Origin: Bacteroidales bacterium
GTDB lineage: Bacteria > Bacteroidota > Bacteroidia > Bacteroidales > VadinHA17
Direction of reading: 5' to 3'
Assembly (NCBI GenBank): GCA_025455535.1
Contig: JALOMM010000014.1
Coordinates: 1 to 16,669, forward strand
Length of the DNA: 16,669 nt
The notes beneath the pieces were generated by a model. The model did no database searches. It saw nothing but the letters and a program-made list of their open reading frames with translations, and was not told the origin of the DNA. Numbering within the stretch: position 1 is the stretch's first letter; each line of letters begins with the position of its first letter. Below are positions 2 to 15,926 of the stretch, piece by piece. The translations under genes were made by a program, and so were the position numbers.

Positions 2-577
2 GTTGATGAAATTACTGCTGACATAGTTCATTTTGTGGATGGACGATTCAGTGCCGGAGAATCGTTTGTTATGGCTGGGTACTCTCTCGGTGCAACTGTC
101 ATTGCCGAAGCGTTTGTCAGGCTGAAGCATAAACCGGAGCGGATAATACTTATTGAACCGAATGCAACTTTTAAATTCCCGGGATGGCTCGCTGTACTTG
201 CCAGGTTTTCAGGGATCATCTATACTCCATTGAAACCGTTTCTTAAGTGGTACATGAGAAGATTCAGGATAAACATTAAGGAAGACCATGAGATGTACCT
301 CATTAACTGCCGTATACTTGATGCAGCGGAACCTGTCCGGCTGGGTCGTACCGTCAGGGCGTTAAGGCCTTATATCATGGGTGAATGCCTGCAGGAAATC
401 ACAATCCCGTCAATGGTCGTAGTCGCCTCAAAGGATATGTTTCACAGTCACGGTGAAGGGTCTTACATTTCTGAAAGAATAATTAACTGCACCAGGCTTG
501 ATATGAGTGACAATAAGCAGACCCACAGTGCTGAGATGGGAAGGGTGATAAGTGAATTTATCCTATCGGAAGCTTAG
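2..577 (+). CDS. alpha/beta-hydrolase fold protein, 5'-truncated
   Basis: This is the C-terminal 191 residues of a gene that begins before the window; the reading frame is open from base 2. The nucleophile elbow G-Y-S-L-G is visible, with the Ser codon at 83-85. A likely catalytic Asp follows a hydrophobic strand (VVVASKD, codon 434-436), and a likely catalytic His lies near the end (THSAEM, codon 524-526). The triad order Ser, Asp, His is that of the alpha/beta-hydrolase superfamily. The stretch between elbow and Asp is rich in aromatic and basic residues and probably forms a cap over the active site. The substrate cannot be told: esterase, lipase and thioesterase are all possible. Its stop codon lies only 4 bases from the stop of the convergent antiporter gene, leaving no room for a terminator between them. 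Confidence 0.75.
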   Translation, partial: VDEITADIVHFVDGRFSAGESFVMAGYSLGATVIAEAFVRLKHKPERIILIEPNATFKFPGWLAVLARFSGIIYTPLKPFLKWYMRRFRINIKEDHEMYLINCRILDAAEPVRLGRTVRALRPYIMGECLQEITIPSMVVVASKDMFHSHGEGSYISERIINCTRLDMSDNKQTHSAEMGRVISEFILSEA

Positions 578-581
578 TATG

Positions 582-2609
582 TCAGGAGGAGAGCCCGGGA
601 TAAATGATCAGGTATCCGTTCACCCCGGTAATCCGGAGTGCCTTCTTCATAAGTGTGCCATAAGCCTGTTCATACGAGACACTGCCTCTCTGAGGTGAAA
701 CGATGACAAGGAGATCATCCGGCTTTATCTGCAGGTTTATATCCTGAATTTCCTTTTCATCAGGGAAAGAGTAGAAATTATGAGATATGTGGCTCCTGAC
801 TTTATGGATAATGTCTTCGATTGACCTGTATGTAGTTCCGAAGGAATAGCTGTTCAGAGGGATAGAGGTGCTTTCAGATATTCTGATAACTTTATCGATA
901 ATACTCATGAATCTTGGTTCCTTCTCAACATTCCTTGGCAGAATAAGAAGAACTCTCTTGCAGAGGTTAATAGGAGATACTGCATTATAGACAAAAATAT
1001 TCTGTTCTGAGTCGTTGGTTAAATTTTCCAGCGGGCGGCCGAACAGAAAGTCTGCCAGGCTTGATTTTCCTTGTGTGCCGATGAGAATGTCTGTTGCCCC
1101 CTTCTCCCTTGCCACCCTTTTTATCCCGGATACAACATTATTGTCAATTGTTGCCAGGGTTTCAAGTTTCCTGCCAGCCGCAATTGCCCGCGTCCCAGCC
1201 TTTTCGAGCGTCGATCTTGCCAGCGCGAGCTTTTTTGCAGCATCCTCATCATCATCAACAACGCAAAGTCCGTAAAGCGGATTATTATGATTTTTCTTTT
1301 TGAGTGTCAGGGCCAGATCAACCAGCCTCTCCATGTTCTGAGGGTTAGACAGCGAGATAATAATGGTTTCCCTGGTTAGATCGTTTTTTACAGAGCTATC
1401 ATGAGTTCCGCCAAGGGCTATGTTGCGTGCTGCTGATTCGGTAATTAATGAAGAGACAAGGCATGTTACCAGTATCAGGATGATTGTGCCGTTAATTACA
1501 TTCTCATCAATTATTCCGATGCGGTAACCGACCATTATTACGGCAAGTATGGCTGCGGCATGAGAGCTTGTCAGTCCGAAGAGAAGCCGTCGCTGATAGG
1601 TTGAGAACTTAAAAATCCGTGAAGTTATTTCAGAGGCAGCCCATTTACCGGCAAGGGCTACTGTTGTCAGTACTGCAGCTACAATCAAAGGTACAGGACC
1701 TGCAAATATGACCCTGAAATCGACAATCATGCCGACACTTATCAGAAAAAATGGAATGAAGAGGGCATTCCCGGTAAAATCAATCCTGTTCCGCAGAATT
1801 GAAGCAGCAGGGATAATCCGGTTAAGGATAAAACCTGCGGCAAAGGCGCCTATTATCGGCTCCAGGCCTGCTATCCTGGCCAGCAATGCACAGATAAAAA
1901 CAATAAAGGCCACAAAAATGAACTGTGAATAGTTATCATCCTCGAGACGCCTGAAGGCCCACCGCGAGACGACCGGGATTACATAAACCATAAACAGCAG
2001 AAAAAGGATAAATGATATTATTAACGTAATGTAAAGATCAACACTGCTTCCGCCTGTTGCTGTTCCGGCAATTGCGGCAAGAACAAAAAGAACCAGAGTA
2101 TCGGTAATGACTGTTCCTCCGGTGGCCACTGCCACAACTTCATTCCTTGCAATGCCAAGCCTTGTGACAATAGGATAAGACACCATGGTGTGCGTGGCGA
2201 ACATATTGGATATCATCAGGCTTGTGATGAGATTGTAATTAAGAAGATAATAACACACTGGAAGGCCGATGCCGAAGGGTACGATGTAAGTCAGTATACC
2301 GAATACTATGCTTTTGTTCCGGGTCCGGCTAAACTGCTGCTGGTCAAGATCAAGCCCTGCAATGAACATCAGAAAAAGCATCCCGATGGTTGAGAAGAGG
2401 TCAACTGCAAGACTCTTCTCGATAATGTTAAGGCCATTCGGGCCAATGATAATGCCTGAAATTATCAGTCCTATAATTCCGGGGATCCTGAATTTCCGCA
2501 GGAAGACCGGGGCTGCCAGGATTATGCCCAGAATCAGCACAAAAACGATCACCGGATCATTTACCGGTAATTTTATCAGGTCTCCTATATGCTCCCCGAA
2601 CAGGTTCAA
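582..2609 (-). CDS. CPA2-family cation:proton antiporter with C-terminal USP-like domains
   Basis: A 675-residue inner-membrane protein. Residues about 18-395 form a run of hydrophobic helices typical of the monovalent cation:proton antiporter-2 (KefB/NapA-like) family. Visible family landmarks are RIPGIIGLI (41-49), FIAGLDLD (82-89), the unwound-helix region GGTVITD with the likely ion-binding Asp170, and FFLISVGMIVD (287-297). Residues about 414-545 resemble a universal stress protein domain in the cytoplasm, ending with a GTQGKSS loop. A second, more diverged copy may follow (about 549-672). KefB-type RCK/TrkA-N regulation is absent, so the USP-like region probably takes the regulatory place. 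The start is TTG at 2609: an in-frame TAA stop immediately precedes it, and the next in-frame ATG lies deep inside the membrane domain. The ion (Na+ or K+) cannot be decided. Confidence 0.88.
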   Translation of the reverse strand: MNLFGEHIGDLIKLPVNDPVIVFVLILGIILAAPVFLRKFRIPGIIGLIISGIIIGPNGLNIIEKSLAVDLFSTIGMLFLMFIAGLDLDQQQFSRTRNKSIVFGILTYIVPFGIGLPVCYYLLNYNLITSLMISNMFATHTMVSYPIVTRLGIARNEVVAVATGGTVITDTLVLFVLAAIAGTATGGSSVDLYITLIISFILFLLFMVYVIPVVSRWAFRRLEDDNYSQFIFVAFIVFICALLARIAGLEPIIGAFAAGFILNRIIPAASILRNRIDFTGNALFIPFFLISVGMIVDFRVIFAGPVPLIVAAVLTTVALAGKWAASEITSRIFKFSTYQRRLLFGLTSSHAAAILAVIMVGYRIGIIDENVINGTIILILVTCLVSSLITESAARNIALGGTHDSSVKNDLTRETIIISLSNPQNMERLVDLALTLKKKNHNNPLYGLCVVDDDEDAAKKLALARSTLEKAGTRAIAAGRKLETLATIDNNVVSGIKRVAREKGATDILIGTQGKSSLADFLFGRPLENLTNDSEQNIFVYNAVSPINLCKRVLLILPRNVEKEPRFMSIIDKVIRISESTSIPLNSYSFGTTYRSIEDIIHKVRSHISHNFYSFPDEKEIQDINLQIKPDDLLVIVSPQRGSVSYEQAYGTLMKKALRITGVNGYLIIYPGLSS

Positions 2610-2645
2610 TTAACAAACCGATTTTTATTTCGTGATGCAATTTAG

Positions 2646-2680
2646 AAAAAAAGAAAGAGACCATTTTAAAGGTCTCTTTC
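2646..2680 (-). terminator. intrinsic terminator after the M16 peptidase gene
   Basis: A perfect 10-base-pair inverted repeat, GAAAGAGACC / GGTCTCTTTC, occupies 2653-2662 and 2671-2680 around an 8-base loop. On the minus strand the stem is followed directly by a run of seven T (2652-2646). This is the classic Rho-independent arrangement, 11 bases past the M16 stop codon. It separates the peptidase gene from the antiporter gene on the same strand. Confidence 0.9.
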
Positions 2681-2691
2681 ATGATCAGGCT

Positions 2692-5496
2692 CTATTTCTC
2701 TTCAGGTAGAAAGACCAGCTCCATAAGGTCCGCTTTGGCCAGATATTTTTTTACCAGTTTCTGAATGGTTTTTTCAGTCATGCCGTCGAGGATTTCATTG
2801 TAGTTAACGGCGGCATTGTTGTCTATGCCTGTCAGATAGTAACTGCGTATGGTGTTTGCCCAGTAGCTGTTATGCAGCAGAGCCTCCTCCCTCGTTTTCA
2901 GCAAATTACTGACTGTTTTATCCAGGTTCTCCTTAGAAGGACCGTTTTTGGCAATACTCTCCAGTTCCCTGTAAATAATAGACTTGAGCTCATCAGCTCT
3001 CTGCGGGTCACATTCGAATGCAACCATGAGAACAGACTTCGCAACAGGCCTCAGCTGTGACGACGCATTGACGCTTACCCCATAGGTGCCGCCCTCTGCC
3101 TCGCGCACTTTCTCGGTGTAAACGAGATCAAGGATACCTTTCAGGACATCCATCGCGATGTAATTCTTTGGTACATATTTCGACTCGGCCGAATAGCTGA
3201 TCACTACTGTTGCCTTGGGCACTGCCATAGGTATCGGTATTTCCTTCCTGACGGTACCCTCAGGCTGTCTGACGCCAAGGTCTTTCCACGTCTCAGAGAG
3301 ATTCTTCGAGGGGAGCGACCCTATATATCTTGAGGCCATCTCACGGGCAACTGACTCTTCAATGTTGCCGGTGATGAAGAAAGTAAATGCCGAGGCGTCA
3401 TCAAAGGCTGTCTCATAGATATAATTAACGTCTTCAAACCTTATCTTCTTCATTGATTCAGGTGTCGCAACAAAGGTACGGGGATGATAACCTGTCATGT
3501 TAAGGCTGAGGCTGTCACCCATCATCTTTCTGGGATCCTTCTGCTGTGCTGCAATCATTGCTGAGAAGCGCCCCAGGAGGGCATCAAAGGCCTCCCTGTT
3601 GTAGTTCGGCCGGGCAAACCTGAGATAGAGAAGCTGCATCAATGTCTCAAAGTCCTTCGGCGTGGAGGAGCCGGAGACAGTCTGCATGACTTCCTGAACT
3701 CCAAGTGTGACGGAAGCTTTTTTCCCGGCCAGCATTTTTGTCAGGGTAGGGTTGTCAAACTCTCCTGCCCCGTACGCCGATATTATCTGCTGGAAGAGGC
3801 TAAGTGAGGGTACGAGTGAGTCTGCATATACCGAAGCGCCACCGTACGCAAAGCCTGATACCGAGACATTGTCTTTCTCGAAATCAGCATGCCTGAAAAT
3901 TACTTTGGCTCCGTTTGAGAGAGTCCACTCCGTTGCTCCGAACTGTGCAACAGGCATTGTTTTAATGACCTCAGCCCCGGCAAGGGGCTCATTTATCAGG
4001 TCAAGACCTCCTGCAATATCTTCATACGGAGCTATTTCTGCTTCACTTACTTTCTTCACGATGGCAAGTGCCTCAGGTTCAGAGAGATGAGATTTGCCTT
4101 CCGGGCCCTCGACGATGATGAAGCTGTTATCTTCAACAACAAGCCCCTTCAGCCTGGCAGAGACCTCTTCCTTTGAGATCTGGGGAAGTATTTGCTTGTA
4201 ATAATCATACCGGACATCAAGCGACGGTACAGGCTCACCGGTGAGGAAATAATCGCTGATCTGTGCAGCCCATGAATCATTGCTGATCTTGTCTCTCTGT
4301 CTGTACATACTCTCGAAGTTTGCCAGCATTGTCGACTTTGCTCTTTCAAGCTCGCCCTGTGTGAATCCATAACGGCGTGCCCGTTCTAGCTCGGTAAGGG
4401 CCGCTTCAAAGGCCTTTCCCTCCTCATTTTCGCGGGCTGTGGCCGAGAGGGAAAGTGCACTGTAGTTTCTGGGTATAAAAGAGCTGTAACTGAGGCCACC
4501 CGAAACGAACGGAGGCGTACCTTTCTGAAGGATCTCGCTGAACCTAGTTCGCATCATGCTGTTCATCAATGAGATGACAAATCCGTCACGCATATACTCC
4601 GTATCCCTGGGTCTGTTATCACGCAGGCTGTCGATGATCATCAGGCTGACTGATGTCTCGGGAGCTTCGGGGTCGGTCACGAGCAGGTATTTTGTGCCCG
4701 ATTTCGGGATAAGGAGGCTTTCGGGTCTTGGTTTCGGATTTTCAACAGCCGGTATCGTTGAAAAGATCTTCCTGATGCTTGCTTCAACGGCATCGACGTC
4801 GATATCTCCCACGACAGCGATGGCCTGAAGATCTGTGCGATACCAATCGTGGTAAAATGCCCGCAAAGTATCAGGGTGGAAGTTCCTCAGGACGGCTGTA
4901 TCTCCGATTATACTTCTGTCAGCATATTTTGATCCTTCAAGGACGACGGGCAGAATTTCAAACATCATTCTCCGGGATGCGTTTCGTCCGCTCCGCCACT
5001 CTTCTATAATAACACCGCGTTCATTGTTTATTTCCTCATCGGCAAGCGTGAGATAATCAGACCAGTCGGCAAGAATCATGAGGCATGTGTCTGTCAGTCC
5101 CGGCTTATCAACAGGCACGTCACTGATATTGTAGACTGTCTCATCAAAGCTTGTATAAGCATTGATATTTCTTCCGAAGGCAACGCCGTGCTTTTGCAGC
5201 TTACTGAGAATATCCTTTCCGGGGAACCTCTTCGTTCCGTTAAAGGCCATGTGTTCAAGGAAATGGGCAAGTCCGTTCTGGCTGTCGGTCTCGAGTATTG
5301 AGCCGACGTTCTGGATGATATAATAACTTGCCCTGCCGGCAGGCTCGGTGTTATGCCTGATGTAGTAGGTCAGGCCGTTATCCAGTTTTCCGATACGGTA
5401 TGCCGGGTCTACAGGCACAGGGTCTCCGGGTGCTGACACGGCAAAAGTGGCAATACCCAATACAATGAAAATAGAAAAAAGAAGCGTTCTTTTCAT
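2692..5496 (-). CDS. periplasmic M16-family zinc metallopeptidase (PqqL/pitrilysin-like)
   Basis: A 934-residue, full-length two-half M16 peptidase. Residues 1-21 are a signal peptide (basic start, long hydrophobic core, cleavage after VSA), so the enzyme should act in the periplasm. The inverted zinc motif HFLEH is at 78-82, giving His78 and His82 as ligands and Glu81 as catalytic base. The third ligand is likely Glu159 in NNER, 77 residues after His82 as in pitrilysin. The C-terminal half (from about 510) repeats the fold without the HxxEH motif, as usual for the inactive half that closes over the substrate. It probably degrades peptides or small proteins entering the periplasm; the natural substrate is unknown. 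It has its own candidate promoter and a strong terminator, so it is probably transcribed alone. Confidence 0.93.
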   Translation of the reverse strand: MKRTLLFSIFIVLGIATFAVSAPGDPVPVDPAYRIGKLDNGLTYYIRHNTEPAGRASYYIIQNVGSILETDSQNGLAHFLEHMAFNGTKRFPGKDILSKLQKHGVAFGRNINAYTSFDETVYNISDVPVDKPGLTDTCLMILADWSDYLTLADEEINNERGVIIEEWRSGRNASRRMMFEILPVVLEGSKYADRSIIGDTAVLRNFHPDTLRAFYHDWYRTDLQAIAVVGDIDVDAVEASIRKIFSTIPAVENPKPRPESLLIPKSGTKYLLVTDPEAPETSVSLMIIDSLRDNRPRDTEYMRDGFVISLMNSMMRTRFSEILQKGTPPFVSGGLSYSSFIPRNYSALSLSATARENEEGKAFEAALTELERARRYGFTQGELERAKSTMLANFESMYRQRDKISNDSWAAQISDYFLTGEPVPSLDVRYDYYKQILPQISKEEVSARLKGLVVEDNSFIIVEGPEGKSHLSEPEALAIVKKVSEAEIAPYEDIAGGLDLINEPLAGAEVIKTMPVAQFGATEWTLSNGAKVIFRHADFEKDNVSVSGFAYGGASVYADSLVPSLSLFQQIISAYGAGEFDNPTLTKMLAGKKASVTLGVQEVMQTVSGSSTPKDFETLMQLLYLRFARPNYNREAFDALLGRFSAMIAAQQKDPRKMMGDSLSLNMTGYHPRTFVATPESMKKIRFEDVNYIYETAFDDASAFTFFITGNIEESVAREMASRYIGSLPSKNLSETWKDLGVRQPEGTVRKEIPIPMAVPKATVVISYSAESKYVPKNYIAMDVLKGILDLVYTEKVREAEGGTYGVSVNASSQLRPVAKSVLMVAFECDPQRADELKSIIYRELESIAKNGPSKENLDKTVSNLLKTREEALLHNSYWANTIRSYYLTGIDNNAAVNYNEILDGMTEKTIQKLVKKYLAKADLMELVFLPEEK

Positions 5497-7844: not shown

Positions 7845-8567
7845 TCATCTGAATATCTCTTTCAATACCTGAAGAGACCTTATTTGTCTGATGCCGGGAA
7901 GGTGAAGCTGGTAATACCTTATTACCCGGTTCAGAAGCTCGGTACGTTCCTCTCCTGTCAGGTGAAGATCTGCAAGCTCGTCGGCCGTAATCATCAGCAG
8001 GCGGTTCAGAAGGCCGGCCAGGGCAGGTTCAAGGTAGTCGGGATGCGTTGGAGGATCCGGGGTGAACTGTCCGCTGATCATGTCAAAACAGAACCCGGCC
8101 TTCGGAGATGATGACGGACCGATGCCGGCATAGGCTGTCAGTGTTACGAGAAACCAGAGATGAAAATTGCTGATCCCGTCAGCCATTTCATCAAGCGATA
8201 TTACGGATGACTCGATGAACCCGTACAAAGCATGGTTGGCATCCTCTTCCCTGATGATATTGTTAAGCAGTTCACCCATGAAGAGGGCAATGGAGCTGCG
8301 CCGGATATCTCCCGGGATGTTTCTGGGGATATAGCTCAGGTTGAGCTCTTTGAGGTTATGTATCTCCCTGTTCTCATAATGGTAGAGCTCGATATTGAAG
8401 ATGTGCAGTGGCTGAAAGTAGGGGTATTTTGTACTTCCTTTCCTTGATGAGATACCTTTGACCATCACTGAGAGCCTTCCGTATTCACGGGTATAGAAGT
8501 GTGCAATCAGCGAGTTGTCTGAATACCTTAAATGATGAAGTAATATGGCTCTTGCCTTAACGATCAT
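7845..8567 (-). CDS. recO: DNA repair protein RecO
   Basis: A 240-residue RecO, which works with RecF and RecR to load RecA onto SSB-coated single-stranded DNA and anneals complementary strands. The N-terminal OB fold (about 1-80) starts with the characteristic pattern KARAILLHHLRYSDNSLI and includes GRLSVMVKGISSRKG. The helical C-terminal domain follows (IALFMGELLNNI, then a long alpha-helical stretch). The four-cysteine zinc site found in some RecO proteins is absent. The start at ATG 8567 gives a normal length. The gene is divergent from cyclase A across 103 bases and heads the likely recO-GH3-dNK operon. Confidence 0.9.
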   Translation of the reverse strand: MIVKARAILLHHLRYSDNSLIAHFYTREYGRLSVMVKGISSRKGSTKYPYFQPLHIFNIELYHYENREIHNLKELNLSYIPRNIPGDIRRSSIALFMGELLNNIIREEDANHALYGFIESSVISLDEMADGISNFHLWFLVTLTAYAGIGPSSSPKAGFCFDMISGQFTPDPPTHPDYLEPALAGLLNRLLMITADELADLHLTGEERTELLNRVIRYYQLHLPGIRQIRSLQVLKEIFR

Positions 8568-8670: not shown

Positions 8671-10065
8671 ATGAATCTGAGGTCAAAAGATCAGCTTCTC
8701 AAGCGTGTGGCCCGGCTTGCGCGGCAGAATACGGAACTAGAGGAGATGCTCAAAAAGCTCGAGCGGGAGAAAAATGAACTGCTTGATGCCAACGAGAGAT
8801 ATAAACTCCTGCTGGAAAAGCACAAGGTTTCTGCTGCCAGAACCGACGAGGAGGAGAAGTCTCTCAGATTCAATATGGTTACGGTTCTCTATGCAGATAT
8901 ACACGGGTTTTCGAAGCTCATGGAAGGGATGGACTCCGCCCAGCTGATGGATGAACTTGACGGGATCTTTTATGAATTCGATGCGATAGTCAGCAAGTAT
9001 CATATTGAAAAAATACGTACCATCGGTGACACATACATGTGCACCGGCGGGATACCGGCAAAGAACATCACAAATCCTGTGGATGTTGTGATGGCAGCCC
9101 TTGAGATGAGATATTACCTCGATAAATATGAGACCTCCAGAAGGGGCGATAAGAAAATATGGGAGCTTAAGATAGGTATTCATACCGGGCCGGTGACAGC
9201 CAGTGTTTCAGGAAAAAAGAAGATCTCATATGATGTCAAGGGTGAGACAGTCAACACGGCAAGCCGGATAGAAGCTGTTTCGGAAAAAGGTTCCATCCTG
9301 ATCTCAGTGATGACATATGAACTTGTCAAGGAGTTTTTCAGCTGCGAATACTTCGGGAAACTTCCGGTGAAATATACCGGTGATCTGCAGATGTACCAGG
9401 TTCAGGGCCTCCTTCCTGAATTATCGGCTGACGGAGAAGGCATGATACCTAATGAGGCATTCAGAACCAAGTTCGCCCTCATGCAGTTCACTGATATACA
9501 GGAGGTTATCCTTGACAAGCTTGAAAGAGAGTTGCCTGAACATCTTCATTACCATAATGTAAAACATACAGTCGATGTGGTTACCGAGGTTGAGCTTATA
9601 GGCTGGGCTGAAGGGTGCAGCGATGAAGATATATTGCTGCTTAAGACCGCAGGATTATTTCATGATGCCGGTCACACGATCGCATATGATGATCATGAAT
9701 TTCACAGTACAGTCCTGGCGCGTGAGTTGCTCCCCGGATATGGATACACCAAAGAACAGATTGAACGTATCTGCTCGATCATCATGTCAACAAAACTTCC
9801 GCCCAGGCCTGAGAATCTCCTGGAGGAGATAATATGCGATTCTGACCTTGATTATCTCGGGAGAAGTGATTTCATCCCGGTGTCCAATACACTGTTCGAG
9901 GAACTTAAAGCCCAGAACAAGATCACCAGGCTTAACGACTGGAATAAGCTACAGGTTAAATTTATCTCCGGACATCAGTATTTTACTGCCACTGCCAGGA
10001 GCCTCAGGGAGGTGAATAAACAGTTACAGATAGAGAGAATTCAGAGTCTCATTACGGAAGACTGA
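8671..10065 (+). CDS. class III nucleotide cyclase with C-terminal phosphodiesterase-like HD domain (cyclase A)
   Basis: A 464-residue cytoplasmic protein with no signal peptide or membrane segment. Residues 7-55 are a charged coiled coil, probably for dimerisation. Residues about 66-245 are a class III cyclase: metal Asp76 (YADIHGF) and Asp120 (TIGDTYM), base-contacting Asp188 (SYDVKGE), and transition-state Asn195 and Arg199 (TVNTASR). The usual adenine-recognising Lys just before TIGD is Arg116, so nucleotide choice is uncertain. Residues about 270-450 are an intact HD domain: YHNVKH (His295, His299), FHDAGH (His331, Asp332, His335) and Asp390/Asp392. This spacing recalls the signature of cyclic-nucleotide phosphodiesterases. 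The protein may therefore both make and break a cyclic nucleotide. It is a paralogue of cyclase B. It is divergent from recO, and its stop abuts that of porZ. Confidence 0.87.
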   Translation: MNLRSKDQLLKRVARLARQNTELEEMLKKLEREKNELLDANERYKLLLEKHKVSAARTDEEEKSLRFNMVTVLYADIHGFSKLMEGMDSAQLMDELDGIFYEFDAIVSKYHIEKIRTIGDTYMCTGGIPAKNITNPVDVVMAALEMRYYLDKYETSRRGDKKIWELKIGIHTGPVTASVSGKKKISYDVKGETVNTASRIEAVSEKGSILISVMTYELVKEFFSCEYFGKLPVKYTGDLQMYQVQGLLPELSADGEGMIPNEAFRTKFALMQFTDIQEVILDKLERELPEHLHYHNVKHTVDVVTEVELIGWAEGCSDEDILLLKTAGLFHDAGHTIAYDDHEFHSTVLARELLPGYGYTKEQIERICSIIMSTKLPPRPENLLEEIICDSDLDYLGRSDFIPVSNTLFEELKAQNKITRLNDWNKLQVKFISGHQYFTATARSLREVNKQLQIERIQSLITED

Positions 10066-12363
10066 TTACCTGATAATGAGCATTTTGGTCACCTCCGCAA
10101 TGCTTCCGTCCTCATTGCTGCAAAAGACCAGGTATACGCCGCTGGTCACTCTTGCTGAGCGATAGTTTCTGAGATCCCACGTAGCCTGGCCACCGCTTGA
10201 GGTAGTTTCCCACACCAGGTTACCGCTTATGTCTGTTATCTTGACCGTTGAATTCTCGATGAGGCCGGTAATGGTCACGACTCCCTCAAAATCTTCCCTG
10301 ACAGGATTGGGAAATACGTACATGCCTGAATAGTCGCTTTTGCCGGTTGTTGCATCTCCCCTGAATGAAACAATACCCTCGGATGTCCCAAACCAGACGT
10401 CCCCTGTTAACCCGTTGATGCTTGCCTTAACAATATTGTCAGAAAGCAGAGGGCTGTTTGAGGTATTGAAATGATAAAGTTGTTCCTTGCCATCTTTGGA
10501 AAGTAAATATGCTCCCGAGCTCAGTGTGCCGAACCATTTCCTGTCAGCCCCGTCAACGGCTATCGAGGTGACGGTCTCGGTCCCCAGCAGATAGTCTGCC
10601 AGGCCTGACCCGTCATTTCTGGGGATCTTTATCCTGGAAGCCTTAAGGTCAGAGGAGAATGCCTTTGAGGGGTTATAGTATACAGCCGGGCCCCTGTCGG
10701 TGCCAACCCAGATGTTTCCTTCAATGTCAGAAGCGATTGAAAACAGGTTGTTCATCACGTTACCCTCTGCATCCTCGACCTGCAGCCTTGTATAACGATC
10801 GTCGGAAATGTTCCCGGGTGTCCCGGCAGGGTCATAGATCAGCAATCCGTGTCCGCGGGGAAGCAAGACCCAGATGAAACCGTTTTCATCGATTGTCATA
10901 TCGCCTGCTACCGGAACATTCAGAGTGAGTGCTGCCGAAACCCATGTGCCTTCCTTGAGCAGAGCCTTGAGGATTCCCGGCACGCCGGACTGGGTCATCC
11001 ACAGGTTTCCTGATTCATCGAATGCGAGACCGCAGATACGTGAATAATTTTCGCCGGGAATAATGCTTGCAAGAGGGGAATTGTACTGGTTGAAATTATT
11101 TATCAGTGATCCGTCCTTAAACTCATATAAACCGTTTCCCCATGATGAAACAAAAACATGCTCATTGTCTAGCGGGTCAGCTACCACTCTCATTGCATCA
11201 CGGTCAGCTGGTTCGTACAGGATAATGCTGTTCCAGCTATTTCCTGAGTTTGTAAATAACTGAAATGGTCTGTAAACATTTCCCCAGGCGTTGTCAACGG
11301 TGCCTCCTGTAATAAGGCTGGTTTTGCCTGCAAAATGTATGTCTGCCACGTTATTTGTGTAGGGTCCTGGCAGGGTATAATTATTGTATTTACTGTAATC
11401 TGAAGTTGATATCAGTCCTGTGGACGAGTCTGCAATCCACATTTTACCTTTGTATGCAATTGATTTAACAGGGTTCACGGTAGCCCATCCGTAACTTGTT
11501 ATCTCCCTGACAACAGCGCCCGTCCCTGACAGCATTAAAACCGAAGAGGAGAGAGATACCGAAACCCCGTAATCTGTTGCATCTACCGATCTGACGCTGC
11601 CTGATGGTCTTTCAAGAATGAAGACTGCCGGTTGCCCGGGAACAACGCGAAACAGACTGTCGGTGCCGGCAGGGTTTGCCGGCTTATTGATGAACAGTGC
11701 CCCGCCGGAGGCTGCAATCTTATTATATTTTGAGCCGGGGGACTGCAGTCCTGCCAGCCTCTCCCAGTTTCCGAAGTAAGAAAGTCCGGTACGGTCACTT
11801 TGCGCTGAGAAGACCCCCTTAGCGGTGACTGCATAGATGCGGTCTCCGAGCAGGGACGTGCCATATACCTCGTTGGTTTCTCCGTCAGGGCCGGGCCTCC
11901 AGGTATCAGCCACATATCTTCCCGCGATATCAAGAACCACGATCCCGAAGCTCGCAGAGAGCAAGGCACGGCCTCCGTTGACAGTCACACCGTAAATCTC
12001 TTTAAGTCCGGGGATATATTTGTTCTTTATGTCCGGGATATTGGTGATGACACCTTTCCTGACCAGGTCAATACCTGTATTCCGATAAACAATGATCAGT
12101 GTCTGCTCCTGCTCACACCATCCAATGCCGCCAATCAGCGACTCATTCAGCCCTGACACCCTTGAGATCGAAGAAACACCGCCGGAGTTCAGATCAACGA
12201 CAAGAACCGAAGCTCCTGCAGATGAATATACCCTGTCACCTCCGCCTGTTACATAGTATGATGAGCTGTAAGAGAGGTGATCCTGCCATGATCCAATGCC
12301 TCCCTGTCCCCTGAGGAGCAGGGGTAAGAACAGGAGGAGTAAGCCGGACAGAAATCGCATCAT
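10066..12363 (-). CDS. porZ: type IX secretion system protein PorZ-like (beta-propeller, C-terminal sorting-type domain)
   Basis: A 765-residue exported protein; residues 1-19 are a signal peptide ending in LLLRGQ. The N-terminus GSWQDHLSYSSSYYV and GGIGWCEQEQTLIIVYR have the look of PorZ. The body shows repeated propeller-type strands (NIWVGTDRG, RKWFGTLSSG, DVWFGTSEG), consistent with the two beta-propellers known in PorZ. Residues about 681-765 form a type A sorting-like domain: it begins YVFPNPVRE, contains SGVYLVF and ends KMLIIR. In Porphyromonas gingivalis PorZ belongs to the surface attachment complex with PorU, PorV and PorQ and helps deliver anionic LPS to secreted cargo. The length is close to that protein. 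It starts 27 bases after rdgB, so both are probably co-transcribed. A generic propeller lipoprotein-like sensor is the alternative. Confidence 0.8.
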   Translation of the reverse strand: MMRFLSGLLLLFLPLLLRGQGGIGSWQDHLSYSSSYYVTGGGDRVYSSAGASVLVVDLNSGGVSSISRVSGLNESLIGGIGWCEQEQTLIIVYRNTGIDLVRKGVITNIPDIKNKYIPGLKEIYGVTVNGGRALLSASFGIVVLDIAGRYVADTWRPGPDGETNEVYGTSLLGDRIYAVTAKGVFSAQSDRTGLSYFGNWERLAGLQSPGSKYNKIAASGGALFINKPANPAGTDSLFRVVPGQPAVFILERPSGSVRSVDATDYGVSVSLSSSVLMLSGTGAVVREITSYGWATVNPVKSIAYKGKMWIADSSTGLISTSDYSKYNNYTLPGPYTNNVADIHFAGKTSLITGGTVDNAWGNVYRPFQLFTNSGNSWNSIILYEPADRDAMRVVADPLDNEHVFVSSWGNGLYEFKDGSLINNFNQYNSPLASIIPGENYSRICGLAFDESGNLWMTQSGVPGILKALLKEGTWVSAALTLNVPVAGDMTIDENGFIWVLLPRGHGLLIYDPAGTPGNISDDRYTRLQVEDAEGNVMNNLFSIASDIEGNIWVGTDRGPAVYYNPSKAFSSDLKASRIKIPRNDGSGLADYLLGTETVTSIAVDGADRKWFGTLSSGAYLLSKDGKEQLYHFNTSNSPLLSDNIVKASINGLTGDVWFGTSEGIVSFRGDATTGKSDYSGMYVFPNPVREDFEGVVTITGLIENSTVKITDISGNLVWETTSSGGQATWDLRNYRSARVTSGVYLVFCSNEDGSIAEVTKMLIIR

Positions 12364-12390
12364 CTTTTTAAAACATTGATTGTATGATAT

Positions 12391-12978
12391 TTATTGCGAC
12401 TGATGGTGGGTTGACAGAAAATTTAGCAGTTTTCTCGTTGCCCGGGCGCGGTGCGATATCCTGTTCTTCTCCGACAGCGGTATTTCAGCGAAGGTCTGTT
12501 CATAACCGTCAGCCAGAAATACCGGATCATATCCAAAGCCCTCCGTCCCTCTTCTGACATCAATTATTTCACCCTTAACGGTTCCCTCGAACAGGTACTC
12601 TTTTTTGTTGAATATCAGAGCAATAACTGTTCTGAATCTGGCTTTGCGGTTACTTTTGCCCGCGAGCAGCCCGAGCAGTTTGGTAATATTGGCATCCGGG
12701 TCCTTGTTCTCTCCAGCGAATCTTGCAGAATGGACTCCCGGAGCGCCGTTGAGCTCATCTACCTCGAGACCGGTGTCGTCGGCAAAGACGTTCATACCAG
12801 TCCTTTCAAAGACATACCTGGCCTTATGAAGGGCATTATCTTCAAGGGTTTCGCCATCCTCACGAATATCTTCAAAAATATCGACATCATTCAGGCCAAG
12901 GACTGTGTAGCTGTCATCAAGGAGAGAGGCTATCTCTCTGACCTTGTGCTTGTTGTTGGTGGCAAATATAAGTTTCAT
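12391..12978 (-). CDS. rdgB: RdgB/HAM1-family non-canonical purine NTP pyrophosphatase
   Basis: A 195-residue cytosolic house-cleaning enzyme that hydrolyses XTP, ITP and dITP to monophosphates, keeping deaminated purines out of DNA and RNA. Family motifs are in order: FATNNKHK at 5-12, GETLEDNALHKA at 42-53, ADDTGLEVDE at 66-75, GVHSARFAG at 81-89, GFGYDPVF at 147-154 and the C-terminal EKNRISHRARA. The length is normal. It is divergent from cyclase B across 115 bases and directly precedes the PorZ-like gene. Confidence 0.95.
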   Translation of the reverse strand: MKLIFATNNKHKVREIASLLDDSYTVLGLNDVDIFEDIREDGETLEDNALHKARYVFERTGMNVFADDTGLEVDELNGAPGVHSARFAGENKDPDANITKLLGLLAGKSNRKARFRTVIALIFNKKEYLFEGTVKGEIIDVRRGTEGFGYDPVFLADGYEQTFAEIPLSEKNRISHRARATRKLLNFLSTHHQSQ

Positions 12979-12998
12979 CTGTTAGCCGGGCTATTGGG

Positions 12999-13006
12999 CA
13001 AATTTA
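12999..13006 (-). promoter_or_regulatory. candidate -7 element of rdgB-porZ
   Basis: On the minus strand TAAATTTG (13006-12999), followed by C, matches the extended TAnnTTTGC form, about 20 bases before the rdgB ATG. No TTTG is evident at -33. Confidence 0.42.
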
Positions 13007-13059
13007 GTCAATCGATCTTCACCGGGCTACGGGTGCTTACAATTCAGTGAAATAAAAAC

Positions 13060-13067
13060 TACATTTG
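13060..13067 (+). promoter_or_regulatory. candidate -7 element of cyclase B
   Basis: TACATTTG matches TAnnTTTG exactly, 26 bases before the ATG at 13094. The -33 position holds no TTTG. It is divergent from the rdgB element with about 50 bases between them, so the two promoters could share regulation. Confidence 0.42.
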
Positions 13068-13093
13068 TATAGATCAGACTTTTAAAATCCCTC

Positions 13094-14845
13094 ATGAAGC
13101 TCAGGATACCAACCGGCATTTTGACACTGCTGTTTCTCTTTTTAACCGTTATTCTTTATGCAGAGGTTACGGCACAGACCGATCAGCCTGAAAGCAGGGA
13201 GCTGACAGGAGGCATTTCCGGAATATATCTCTATAAATCGCACGAGAAGATCGATACCACATTAAAAACACCGGTCATTCGACATCGTGAAGGAATTGTT
13301 TTCGAAATGATCACCGACGGAGGAATAGAGTACTCATTCTTCATGGAAGGGCCTGATGACAGCTGGACGGCATGGGCCGGCAGGAATTACAAGGAATACA
13401 CGAATCTGACACAGGTTGCCCTTATTCTTTACCCGCTGGCGTTGTTGTCTGTGATTCTAATGCTGAGACGCCGTACCCACCGGCTTTTCAGGGACAGGCA
13501 GAAGCGGCTTGAAGAGCTGATAGACGAGCGCACCGAGGAGCTTCAGCATGAGAAGGAGAAATCTGACAATCTGCTGGCAAACATGCTTCCCAAGGGGACA
13601 GCGGCAGAGATAATGTCAACAGGGAAAGCAGCCAAGACAAAGTACAATTTTGTCACTGTGCTGTTTTCAGACATCCAGGGATTTACCAGGATCGCTGAGG
13701 AGATGAATCCGGAGGCACTGATTGATGAGCTTGACCGCTTCTTCTTTCACTTCGATTCCGTGGCAGAAAAATACAGGATTGAGAAGATTAAAACCATCGG
13801 TGATGCTTACATGTGTGCAGGTGGCATTCCTGAAAGAAACAGAACCAATCCTGTTGAGGTGGTGCTTGCAGCGCTGGAGATGCAGAAATACATGGAGACA
13901 ATGAGGAATGACCCGGCTAATAATGCGGCCCGTTTCTGGGATATCAGGGTGGGCATTCACACCGGAACCGTCATTGCAGGTGTGGTGGGTCATAAGAAAA
14001 TAGCATATGACATCTGGGGCGATACCGTGAACATAGCCAGCAGGATGGAATCATCAGGCGAACCGGGTAAGATCAATATCTCGGGAACGACATACGAGTT
14101 TGTCAAGGAATATTTCACATGCCATTACCGCGGAAGGATGCCGGTGAAGTATAAGGGAGACCTTGACATGTATTTTGTGACGGGAATAAAACCTGAACTT
14201 ACTGATCCGGACGGCACTCCCAACAGGAAGTTTTTCACCAGGATTGAGATGATCCGCATATTGGATGTGGAAGAGCATGTGTTCACCAGCTATGCTGAAA
14301 ATGCCTCTCCTGATCTTTTCTTTCACAGCACTGATTATATACGCAATGTGTGCCTCAATGCCGATCTCCTGGCAAGGGCCGAGAATCTTGAGGATCGTGA
14401 CTATATCCATCTAAGGCTTGCATCGGTGTTTCTCTTCTTCGGGTATGTCTTTGATTATCATAATCCACATGCAGCAGCTAAAAAGAGGGCAGGAGAGATA
14501 CTTGCGGTATATGGCTTTGATCATTCAACATTTGAGGCGGTAGCCTCACTGATGAGCAATGCATTCTCACCTGAGCAGGACAATGCGGCAGGAAGGGTCC
14601 TGCATGATGCCGCCTTTGATTTTACCGGCAGGGTTGATTTTGTAAATATGGCCGACAGGCTCTTCAGGGAGGAGATGGCATACGGAAAGGTCGGTGACCT
14701 CAAAGACTGGTTCAGAGAGTTTATCAGGAGGGTGCAGGATAATCCCTTCCTGACTGAGACGGCCCGCAAGCTGGAGTCTGTAGCGAGGGAAACGCAAATA
14801 AAAGAAATTCAGCGGTTTGCAGACGAAAGAATCAACAATATCTGA
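13094..14845 (+). CDS. membrane-anchored class III adenylate cyclase with degenerate HD-like tail (cyclase B)
   Basis: A 583-residue protein. Residues 1-28 are a signal peptide or first membrane helix. The short periplasmic part (about 29-105) ends in MEGPDDSWTAWAGR and KEYTNL, which resembles a Y_Y_Y sensor domain lacking its last strands. A membrane helix spans about 107-124, followed by a coiled-coil transducer (about 132-175, LLANMLP). The cyclase domain (about 180-365) has every canonical residue: metal Asp193 and Asp237, adenine-binding Lys233 and Asp306 (AYDIWGD), and Asn313 and Arg317 (TVNIASR). ATP to cAMP is therefore likely. Residues about 385-575 align with the HD domain of cyclase A, but the metal ligands are replaced (Tyr415, Leu447, Phe448, Tyr451, Ala507), so this domain should be inactive. 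ilvE follows 58 bases later with its own promoter. Confidence 0.88.
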   Translation: MKLRIPTGILTLLFLFLTVILYAEVTAQTDQPESRELTGGISGIYLYKSHEKIDTTLKTPVIRHREGIVFEMITDGGIEYSFFMEGPDDSWTAWAGRNYKEYTNLTQVALILYPLALLSVILMLRRRTHRLFRDRQKRLEELIDERTEELQHEKEKSDNLLANMLPKGTAAEIMSTGKAAKTKYNFVTVLFSDIQGFTRIAEEMNPEALIDELDRFFFHFDSVAEKYRIEKIKTIGDAYMCAGGIPERNRTNPVEVVLAALEMQKYMETMRNDPANNAARFWDIRVGIHTGTVIAGVVGHKKIAYDIWGDTVNIASRMESSGEPGKINISGTTYEFVKEYFTCHYRGRMPVKYKGDLDMYFVTGIKPELTDPDGTPNRKFFTRIEMIRILDVEEHVFTSYAENASPDLFFHSTDYIRNVCLNADLLARAENLEDRDYIHLRLASVFLFFGYVFDYHNPHAAAKKRAGEILAVYGFDHSTFEAVASLMSNAFSPEQDNAAGRVLHDAAFDFTGRVDFVNMADRLFREEMAYGKVGDLKDWFREFIRRVQDNPFLTETARKLESVARETQIKEIQRFADERINNI

Positions 14846-14903: not shown

Positions 14904-15926
14904 ATGGTTACACTGGATTGGAACAATCTGCCATTTGGCTATATAAAGGCTAATTACAATGTAAGATGCTATTTCAGGGACGGCAAATGGAGTGAGCCGG
15001 AGATATCTGACTCTGAGTTTATTAACATACATATCGCCGCTACCGGGCTGCACTACGGGCAGGAGGCATTTGAAGGGCTGAAGGCTTACAGGGGGCGCGA
15101 CGGAAAGATAAGGCTTTTCAGGTGGGAGGATAACGCAAAAAGGCTTCATTCTTCTGCCCTGGGAGTGAAGATGGAACCTGTCCCGGTTGATCTGTTCAGG
15201 GAGGCGATATTTACAGCGGTCAGGCTCAATGAGAAATTTGTTCCGCCATACGGATCAGGAGCTTCATTGTACATCAGGCCGTTGCTTTACGGCAGCGGAG
15301 CAGAGGTGGGGGTGAAGCCTTCCTCGGAATACACCTTCATCGTCTTTGTCACTCCGGTGGGGCCCTATTTCAAGGGGGGTGTAAAGCCGGTGAACATGCT
15401 GATGTGCCGTGACGTGGACCGTGCCGCTCCGCTTGGCACCGGAAATATAAAGGTGGGAGGCAACTATGCGGCCAGCCTGCGGGCCATTGTCAGAGCCCGT
15501 GACGAGGGATACGGCAATGCACTCTTCCTGGATGCAAGAGAGAAGAAATACATTGATGAGTGCGGCCCTGCAAACTTCTTCGCAATTAAGAACAATACCT
15601 ACATCACTCCAAAGTCGGACTCCATACTTCCCTCAATAACCAACAAGAGTCTTCTTGCGATTGCCGGGAAGATGGGTTTAAAAACTGAGATACGAAAGAT
15701 ACCTGTCGAGGAGCTTGCCGAGTTCGAGGAGACTGGCGCCTGCGGCACAGCTGCAGTGATAAGCCCCATTGCAAAGATAGTTGACACTGACACCGGGAAA
15801 ATCTACGAGTACTGCAAGGACGGCAAGCCGGGACCTGTTTCGATGAAGCTCTTCAACAAACTCATCGGGATACAGTATGGCGATGAGCCTGATGAATTCG
15901 GATGGGTGACAATAGTGGAGCTTTAG
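14904..15926 (+). CDS. ilvE: branched-chain amino acid aminotransferase (PLP fold type IV)
   Basis: A 340-residue cytosolic PLP enzyme that interconverts Leu, Ile and Val with their 2-oxo acids using glutamate/2-oxoglutarate. It is the last step of branched-chain synthesis and the first of breakdown. The N-terminal pattern LHYGQEAFEGLKAYRG (49-64) is typical of class IV transaminases. Lys183 in GTGNIKVGGNYA is the Schiff-base lysine. YIDECGPANFF carries the conserved Glu that contacts the PLP pyridine nitrogen, and GACGTAAVISP near the C-terminus binds the cofactor phosphate. The length matches bacterial BCATs, and the residues fit the BCAT branch better than D-amino-acid transaminase or aminodeoxychorismate lyase. 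ATG 14904 is the natural start and is preceded by a near-consensus promoter. No other ilv/leu gene is in the window. Confidence 0.94.
   Translation: MVTLDWNNLPFGYIKANYNVRCYFRDGKWSEPEISDSEFINIHIAATGLHYGQEAFEGLKAYRGRDGKIRLFRWEDNAKRLHSSALGVKMEPVPVDLFREAIFTAVRLNEKFVPPYGSGASLYIRPLLYGSGAEVGVKPSSEYTFIVFVTPVGPYFKGGVKPVNMLMCRDVDRAAPLGTGNIKVGGNYAASLRAIVRARDEGYGNALFLDAREKKYIDECGPANFFAIKNNTYITPKSDSILPSITNKSLLAIAGKMGLKTEIRKIPVEELAEFEETGACGTAAVISPIAKIVDTDTGKIYEYCKDGKPGPVSMKLFNKLIGIQYGDEPDEFGWVTIVEL

What the first reader, a model, noticed from the sequence alone, without database searches (positions are those of the whole stretch)
8671..14845. Two paralogous cyclase-HD proteins that have diverged in opposite ways
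Both proteins have the same unusual order, class III cyclase then HD-type domain, and can be aligned to the last residues (ETQIKEIQRF in B, KQLQIERIQSL in A). Protein A keeps the full HD metal set but has a substituted base-recognition residue in the cyclase. Protein B keeps a perfect adenylate cyclase site but has lost the HD metal ligands. This suggests subfunctionalisation: B mainly makes a cyclic nucleotide and A mainly removes or tunes it. The pair flanks rdgB-porZ, and each member is divergent from a housekeeping gene (recO, rdgB). The residues are seen directly; the division of labour is inference.
Basis: partly seen in the sequence, partly recalled or inferred. Interest (0 to 1): 0.72.

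Follow-up and report, generated by a model that had tools for sequence, protein, structure and literature searches.

The report
Split cAMP maker and breaker pair
Two related proteins in a Bacteroidales-type genome each carry a cAMP-making domain fused to a likely cAMP-breaking domain, and over evolution one has lost the breaking site while the other has remodelled or is losing the making site, so a once two-way enzyme seems to have been divided between two genes.

Summary
A (8671-10065) and B (13094-14845) are paralogues, 38% identical over 463 residues: class III cyclase, then HD domain. Reciprocal erosion is clade-wide. Among 164 unique relatives on a tree, clade A keeps the HD metal set in 85/85 and the six canonical cyclase residues in 35/85; clade B keeps the cyclase set in 36/36 and the HD set in 0/36. 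A third group, mostly long sensor proteins, keeps both in most rows, so the ancestor was probably bifunctional and A and B are not immediate sisters. In a 295-genome sample of the order, B accompanies A in 18/20 genomes and the third group in 0/20.

New evidence ties the HD to the cyclase product: its N-terminal half resembles class I cyclic-nucleotide phosphodiesterases, and outside the order 5 of 17 unfused HD genes lie within 3 kb of a class III cyclase gene, 0.04 expected. B's dead HD is still under purifying selection.

Best reading: B is a membrane adenylate cyclase with a pseudo-phosphodiesterase; A a soluble cAMP phosphodiesterase with a remodelled cyclase domain. The fusion itself is already recorded; reciprocal decay is the new part. 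No activity was measured.

The parts
8671..10065 (+). Protein A, 464 aa: no sensor or membrane part seen; N-terminal helix (3-55 in the model), class III cyclase domain (66-245), HD domain (about 258-464)
   Evidence: AF2 mean pLDDT 88.6
8866..9405 (+). Cyclase domain of A; metal Asp D76 and D120 kept, R116 in place of the base-recognition Lys, K190 in place of the conserved Trp
   Evidence: clade counts
9442..10062 (+). HD domain of A with H295, H299, D302, H331, D332, H342, D392 and a class I phosphodiesterase-like YHN..H..DV stretch
13094..14845 (+). Protein B, 583 aa: signal peptide-like start and one membrane helix (both by eye), partial Y_Y_Y sensor (by comparison with relatives), long helix, class III cyclase, degenerate HD domain
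   Evidence: (AF2 mean pLDDT 80.4)
13637..14182 (+). Cyclase domain of B with all six canonical adenylate cyclase residues (D193, K233, D237, D306, N313, R317)
   Evidence: 36/36 in clade B
14228..14842 (+). Degenerate HD domain of B (Y415, L447, F448, A507 at the metal positions); fold predicted intact; dN/dS 0.095 against L003
10066..12363 (-). porZ, between A and B, end to end with A
   Evidence: PF21544
12391..12978 (-). rdgB (Ham1 family), divergent from B; also found upstream of 14 of 43 third-group genes
7845..8567 (-). recO, divergent from A
14904..15926 (+). class IV aminotransferase (ilvE-like; name from general knowledge), 58 bp downstream of B, same strand

Best explanation
A and B descend from a cyclase-HD protein that both made and hydrolysed cAMP. 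After duplication the two activities were parted. B is a membrane-anchored adenylate cyclase that takes its input from the periplasmic Y_Y_Y (in longer relatives also propeller) sensor; its HD domain has lost the metal ligands and is kept as a pseudo-phosphodiesterase, probably to regulate or dimerise the cyclase. A is a soluble phosphodiesterase in which the cyclase domain has been remodelled (W->K in nearly the whole clade, often with the metal Asp or base Lys changed) and probably serves mainly as a nucleotide-sensing regulatory domain, as a degenerate GGDEF domain does for an EAL phosphodiesterase. SHOWN: homology, residue states, clade-wide pattern, synteny, co-occurrence, purifying selection on B's HD. 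INFERRED: the bifunctional ancestor, that the substrate of the HD is cAMP, that B's cyclase is active, and the regulatory roles of the eroded domains.
For: Clade counts: HD metal set A 85/85, B 0/36, third group 42/43; cyclase residues A 35/85 (one row truncated), B 36/36, third group 35/43. Best-scoring 120+120 proteins: A HD 120/120, B HD 0/120, B cyclase 120/120. Extended set, 197 of 203 rows scorable: A 120/120 HD intact, 46/120 cyclase canonical; B 34/34 HD broken with cyclase canonical. B genomes hold A in 18/20, third-group genomes in 20/44; B and the third group never together (0/20). The HD N-half profile has class I PDEs on top (TbPDEB1 6e-5, PDE9A 5e-4), aligned at YHN..H..DV and HD. 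Unfused HD genes lie within 3 kb of a class III cyclase in 5/17 when two found through a cyclase match are left out (7/19 with them); expected 0.04. dN/dS of B's HD 0.095.
Against: The whole-HD profile fits general HD hydrolases better than PDEs (2pq7 1e-7, YedJ 2.6e-5, BH2835 1.4e-4, TbPDEB1 7e-4), and an unrelated pentatricopeptide repeat protein scores 2.3e-5 there, so these values are soft; in the N-half search BH2835 (8.6e-5) ties with the PDEs. PDEase_I stays under Pfam's cut-off. HD genes exist in two genomes with no PF00211 match (G589, G591). The link between decay of A's cyclase and presence of a partner (canonical 20/40 without, 3/38 with; Fisher 5e-5) is not supported by phylogenetically independent pairs, which are too few. 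HD loss is only about two events on the tree. Two of 20 B genomes show no A. Window A keeps both metal Asp. No cAMP receptor was recognised in the 62%-complete genome.
Confidence: 0.6

Rival explanations
1. A is still bifunctional: it makes and breaks a cyclic nucleotide, and R116/K190 shift its base preference (for example to another NTP) rather than abolishing synthesis.
For: Window A keeps both metal Asp plus D188, N195, R199; its cyclase domain is about as constrained as its HD (dN/dS 0.056 vs 0.040 against L003, 0.094 vs 0.068 against L004); R116 is present in 96 of the 120 best-scoring relatives, as a selected change would be; half of the A proteins in genomes with no partner keep the canonical six residues (20/40).
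Against: The first metal Asp is neither D nor E in 18 of 84 clade-A rows, which a change of specificity does not need; the fewest changes of that state on the tree are 11, losses and regains not told apart.
Confidence: 0.3
2. A and B act as a cyclase heterodimer: class III sites form between two chains, so A's eroded chain pairs with B's intact one, as C1 and C2 do in animal cyclases (recalled), and A brings its phosphodiesterase to B.
For: Co-occurrence 18/20; B always canonical while A varies.
Against: Clade A changes residues of both half-sites (metal Asp and base Lys) rather than one set; A occurs without B or the third group in 38 of 102 genomes; no complex was modelled.
Confidence: 0.12
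3. The HD is not a cyclic-nucleotide phosphodiesterase but another HD phosphohydrolase (for example a nucleotidase), fused to the cyclase for other reasons.
For: Best whole-domain PDB sequence match is a general HD hydrolase (2pq7); HD genes in two genomes without any PF00211 match.
Against: The catalytic half matches class I PDEs at least as well as any general HD hydrolase; fusion and close linkage to class III cyclases.
Confidence: 0.25
4. B is decaying as a whole (pseudogene in progress); the HD changes are the first sign, and the 34-residue sensor gap another.
For: dN/dS of the HD is about ten times that of the cyclase domain (0.095 vs 0.010); window B's partial Y_Y_Y.
Against: Cyclase residues intact in 36/36 and 120/120; HD dN/dS well under 1; window B is one open frame; 28 of 35 clade-B relatives lie between rdgB and the aminotransferase gene.
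Confidence: 0.03

Closest known systems
CAPE, combined adenylyl cyclase with phosphodiesterase of basal land plants and charophytes (PMC5159850: outline with abstract, and Discussion read; PMC8115329: search listing only)
   Same: One chain with a class III adenylate cyclase and a class I phosphodiesterase; both activities shown for MpCAPE
   Different: Opposite domain order (PDE first), plants, both activities present; here the HD is class I-like only in its N-terminal half
GGDEF-EAL composite proteins of c-di-GMP signalling, for example Caulobacter CC3396 (PMC7288161, passages read)
   Same: Making and breaking domains in one chain with one degenerate; the degenerate GGDEF binds GTP and activates the EAL phosphodiesterase
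   Different: Other messenger and another phosphodiesterase fold; here the decay is split between two paralogous clades
Cyclase domain fused with, or cyclase-like gene beside, a PF01966 phosphohydrolase (PMC4886424, passages read; pair HSW_3800/HSW_3799, which I recall to be from Hymenobacter)
   Same: The same kinds of domain joined or adjacent
   Different: The listed protein is an uncharacterised cyclase-like one; no site analysis, phosphodiesterase reading or reciprocal decay in the passages read
Class I cyclic-nucleotide phosphodiesterases (TbPDEB1, PDE9A, PDE5)
   Same: YHN..H..DV and HD segments align
   Different: Match covers about 47 residues (TbPDEB1) of the N-terminal half; below Pfam's PF00233 cut-off
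Pycsar cyclases PycC (PADLOC)
   Same: Class III cyclase similarity (B matches PDLC00734 at 8.6e-19)
   Different: No effector among the window's neighbouring genes scanned; conserved housekeeping context

Membership tests
Class III nucleotide cyclase (adenylate type) | PF00211 domain with two metal Asp, base Lys/Asp, transition-state Asn/Arg | tested here: met
   B: all six, and 36/36 in its clade; A: PF00211 met but five of six residues (R116). Residue roles recalled.
Class III nucleotide cyclase (adenylate type) | cAMP synthesis in vitro | not testable with these tools
   no assay
HD superfamily phosphohydrolase | Metal ligands H...HD...D (protein A) | tested here: met
   H299, H331, D332, D392; PF01966 above cut-off; 85/85 of clade A
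HD superfamily phosphohydrolase | Metal ligands H...HD...D (protein B) | tested here: not met
   Y415, L447, F448, A507; 0/36 of clade B
Class I cyclic-nucleotide phosphodiesterase (PF00233) | Match above the family's cut-off | tested here: not met
   14.7 bits against 24.8
Class I cyclic-nucleotide phosphodiesterase (PF00233) | Same fold | tested here: inconclusive
CAPE-type bifunctional cyclase/phosphodiesterase | Both sites canonical in one chain | tested here: not met
   A has R116 (conservative, effect unknown), B lacks the HD set; 34 of 43 scorable third-group rows have both
Pycsar defence | Adjacent cyclic-nucleotide-gated effector | tested here: not met
   neighbours scanned are a deoxynucleoside kinase, GH3, recO, porZ, rdgB and an aminotransferase

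The most novel reading that the evidence does not exclude
Bacteroidales have a cAMP counterpart of the GGDEF-EAL system: composite cyclase-phosphodiesterase proteins in which the dead half is a regulatory sensor. A's remodelled cyclase domain binds ATP or cAMP and gates the attached phosphodiesterase; B's pseudo-phosphodiesterase senses cAMP and feeds back on the attached cyclase. The pair arose by splitting a bifunctional, propeller-coupled ancestor whose doubly intact descendants still stand beside the same neighbour genes in related families.
Probability: 0.3. Interest if true: 0.82.

Novelty: new variant of a known kind. Interest (0 to 1): 0.6.

Why it matters
It gives a natural series (doubly intact, cyclase-only, phosphodiesterase-leaning) for a two-way cAMP enzyme in a phylum whose cAMP signalling is, as far as I know, little studied; an early census reported no adenylate cyclases in the four Bacteroidetes genomes then available (PMC1183210, passage read). 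If the HD proves to be a cAMP phosphodiesterase, it adds a bacterial HD-type, class I-like enzyme tied to class III cyclases in several Bacteroidota groups, and offers pseudo-enzyme domains whose regulatory role can be tested directly.

Tried and rejected
Pycsar was considered because of PADLOC hits and rejected: generic class III similarity, no effector among the neighbours scanned, housekeeping context. Fold searches with the whole models showed cyclases only in the rows listed; they say nothing about the HD. The rule 'never both sites broken' held for the 161 scorable rows of 164 but failed in the extended set: L228 (G279) has both altered. The association between decay of A's cyclase and a partner gene is strong in raw counts but not in independent pairs (on average 1.3 pairs for, 0.1 against, 4.6 without difference, for any site change; 1.6 for, 1.7 against, 2.7 without, for the metal Asp), so it is not used as proof. 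Sign tests on HD loss against cyclase change were uninformative (2 pairs). A search for the cAMP receptor found three CRP/FNR-type proteins in the held part of the genome; none shows the cAMP-binding motif as I recall it. Promoter and terminator scans were at the level of shuffles; no Rfam family at gathering threshold in the window. My first linkage count (7 of 14) contained two loci found through a cyclase match (L054, G311) and left out five weaker HD hits; it was redone. Dropped rows: 7 frames with only one of the two domains and duplicates; 6 rows with gaps or X; 2 of the 104 genomes were not classified, G012 (cyclase and HD in two frames) and G274 (not fetched by oversight). Paper searches.
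Full report
1. THE OBSERVATION. The window is contig C155 of a genome of 1.73 Mb, 61.9% complete. I take it to be a member of the Bacteroidales because most of its nearest records bear that name; the genome itself is unnamed. A and B are the only two PF00211 matches in the held part. They align over 463 residues at 38% identity, through the HD region to near the ends. A has PF00211 and PF01966; B has PF00211 only, and its isolated HD region also gives no HD or phosphodiesterase hit. AlphaFold2 models (A mean pLDDT 88.6; B 80.4) list the same run of 12 helices in both HD regions, so B's domain is predicted to fold.

2. CLADE-WIDE PATTERN. Relatives came from genome contigs searched with A (54 loci) and from a sample of 295 genomes of the order searched with B and A. 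From the first fetches, 164 unique sequences with both regions (window included; 7 one-domain frames and duplicates dropped) were put on trees (FastTree; IQ-TREE quick, read). Clade A (85 rows, SH-aLRT 99): HD ligands H299, H331, D332 and D392 all present in 85/85; the six canonical cyclase residues in 35/85 (one row truncated). The first metal Asp is N in 12, E in 8, Y in 3, Q in 2, S in 1 of 84; the base Lys is changed in 15 of 84; the adenine Asp is E in 22 and N in 2 of 85. Clade B (36 rows, SH-aLRT 99): six cyclase residues in 36/36, HD set in 0/36; D392 is absent in all 34 rows with a letter there and is the only one of the four ligands changed in the mildest case (L117), so it may have been lost first. 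Third group (43 rows; 27 have frames of 1190 aa or more): HD 42/43, cyclase 35/43. A Trp beside the adenine Asp is Lys in 83/85 of clade A and Trp in 36/36 of B and 42/43 of the third group. In the 120 best-scoring proteins of each query, A has the HD set in 120/120 and Arg for Lys in 96; B has the cyclase set in 120/120 and the HD set in 0/120.

3. HISTORY. On a tree without the site columns, HD loss needs 2 changes and cyclase-site change 13. Neighbours within 1.5 kb: clade B has rdgB upstream and the aminotransferase (ilvE-like) gene downstream in 28 of 35 places, one of the two in the other 7; the third group has rdgB in 14 and the aminotransferase in 10 of 43, never both, neither in 19; clade A lies between recO and porZ in 25 of 89, before the aminotransferase in 13 (once between rdgB and it, L175), with none of these neighbours in 47. 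I infer that the rdgB/aminotransferase place is ancestral; this is suggestive, not proved. Six of seven long third-group proteins scanned have two-component-regulator propellers above the Pfam cut-off, all but L100; the long clade-B protein L093 has them too. Clade A has no frame over 518 aa.

4. CO-OCCURRENCE. 102 of the 104 genomes with a hit were classified, the window's included: A only 38, third group only 24, A with third group 20, A with B 18, B only 2 (G006, G228), B with third group 0. B goes with A in 18/20, the third group with A in 20/44 (Fisher 8e-4, not corrected for kinship). The search scored at most five candidates per genome, so absences are soft. A's cyclase residues are canonical in 20/40 A proteins without a partner, 0/20 with a third-group partner, 3/18 with B (Fisher 5e-5 raw), but independent pairs are too few to support this. 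In the extended set 197 of 203 rows could be scored; one (L228) has both sites altered.

5. WHAT THE HD DOES. A profile of 49 HD domains matches general HD hydrolases best in the PDB (2pq7 1e-7; YedJ 2.6e-5) and class I phosphodiesterases behind them (TbPDEB1 7e-4, PDE9A 3.5e-3); an unrelated pentatricopeptide repeat protein scores 2.3e-5, so such values are soft. A profile of the N-terminal 90 residues puts TbPDEB1 first (6e-5) with YHN..H..DV and HD in register, tied with the general HD protein BH2835 (8.6e-5), then the metal-dependent phosphohydrolase 4mcw (4.5e-4) and PDE9A (5e-4). PDEase_I appears below cut-off in A's HD, L056, L100 and L101. Outside the order the domain occurs unfused or in other fusions. 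Of 17 such genes not found through a cyclase match, 5 lie within 3 kb of a class III cyclase gene and 8 within 12 kb, with 0.04 and 0.15 expected from the number of cyclase genes in these genomes (Poisson 1e-9 and 5e-12; with L054 and G311 7 and 10 of 19). Several of these genomes are of one family or genus, so the cases are not fully independent. One genome has an apparent operon of two cyclases and the HD (L240). Two genomes with an HD gene have no PF00211 match. I take this as good, not final, evidence that the HD removes the cyclase product.

6. SELECTION. Against L003, dN/dS (NG86) in B is 0.010 for the cyclase, 0.095 for the HD and 0.20 for the N-terminal part; in A 0.056 for the cyclase and 0.040 for the HD. 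For B this is one usable pair; in the others dS is saturated or over 2. B's HD is relaxed but kept.

7. KNOWN WORK. Bifunctional AC-PDE chains are known in plants (CAPE, PMC5159850: abstract and Discussion read). A degenerate GGDEF that binds GTP to activate EAL is known (PMC7288161: passages read). Cyclase plus a PF01966 phosphohydrolase is a recorded architecture (PMC4886424: passages read). I found no account of reciprocal decay of such a pair in the listings; the library holds open-licence PMC papers only.

8. VERDICT. The division of labour is the best reading, with the corrections that A and B are separated by a mainly doubly intact group, that K->R is a local change, and that window A may still make a cyclic nucleotide.

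Noticed in passing
window 13094-14845 (B residues about 105-108): Window B lacks, in frame, 34 residues that its nearest relative P0121 (617 aa) has: the second half of the Y_Y_Y sensor before the membrane helix. Real deletion or assembly error is not decided.
   Followed up: partly
L227 (G012) 567-4445: Cyclase frame and HD frame lie back to back, separated by one stop codon: possibly a gene fission of a long cyclase-HD gene.
   Followed up: no
L236 4602-7241 and L237 2875-5463: The same HD domain is fused to TPR repeats behind an N-terminal segment that looks TIR-like by eye; in L236 it is convergent with, and about 20 bp from, a class III cyclase gene.
   Followed up: partly
L234 6647-8143: HD domain fused to a YitT membrane domain and DUF2179, divergent from a 7TMR-DISM cyclase gene.
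   Followed up: no
L053, L056, L230: Unfused HD genes in seemingly shared surroundings (frames compared by eye); the genomes of L053 and L056 have no PF00211 match, so this branch may have another substrate.
   Followed up: partly
L228 547-4269 (G279): A 1241-aa relative with both the cyclase and the HD sites altered, the only such row among the 197 scored.
   Followed up: no
clade B, position of A-H295: The His that would be the phosphodiesterase acid (role recalled) is kept in 36/36 clade-B rows although the metal ligands are lost.
   Followed up: no
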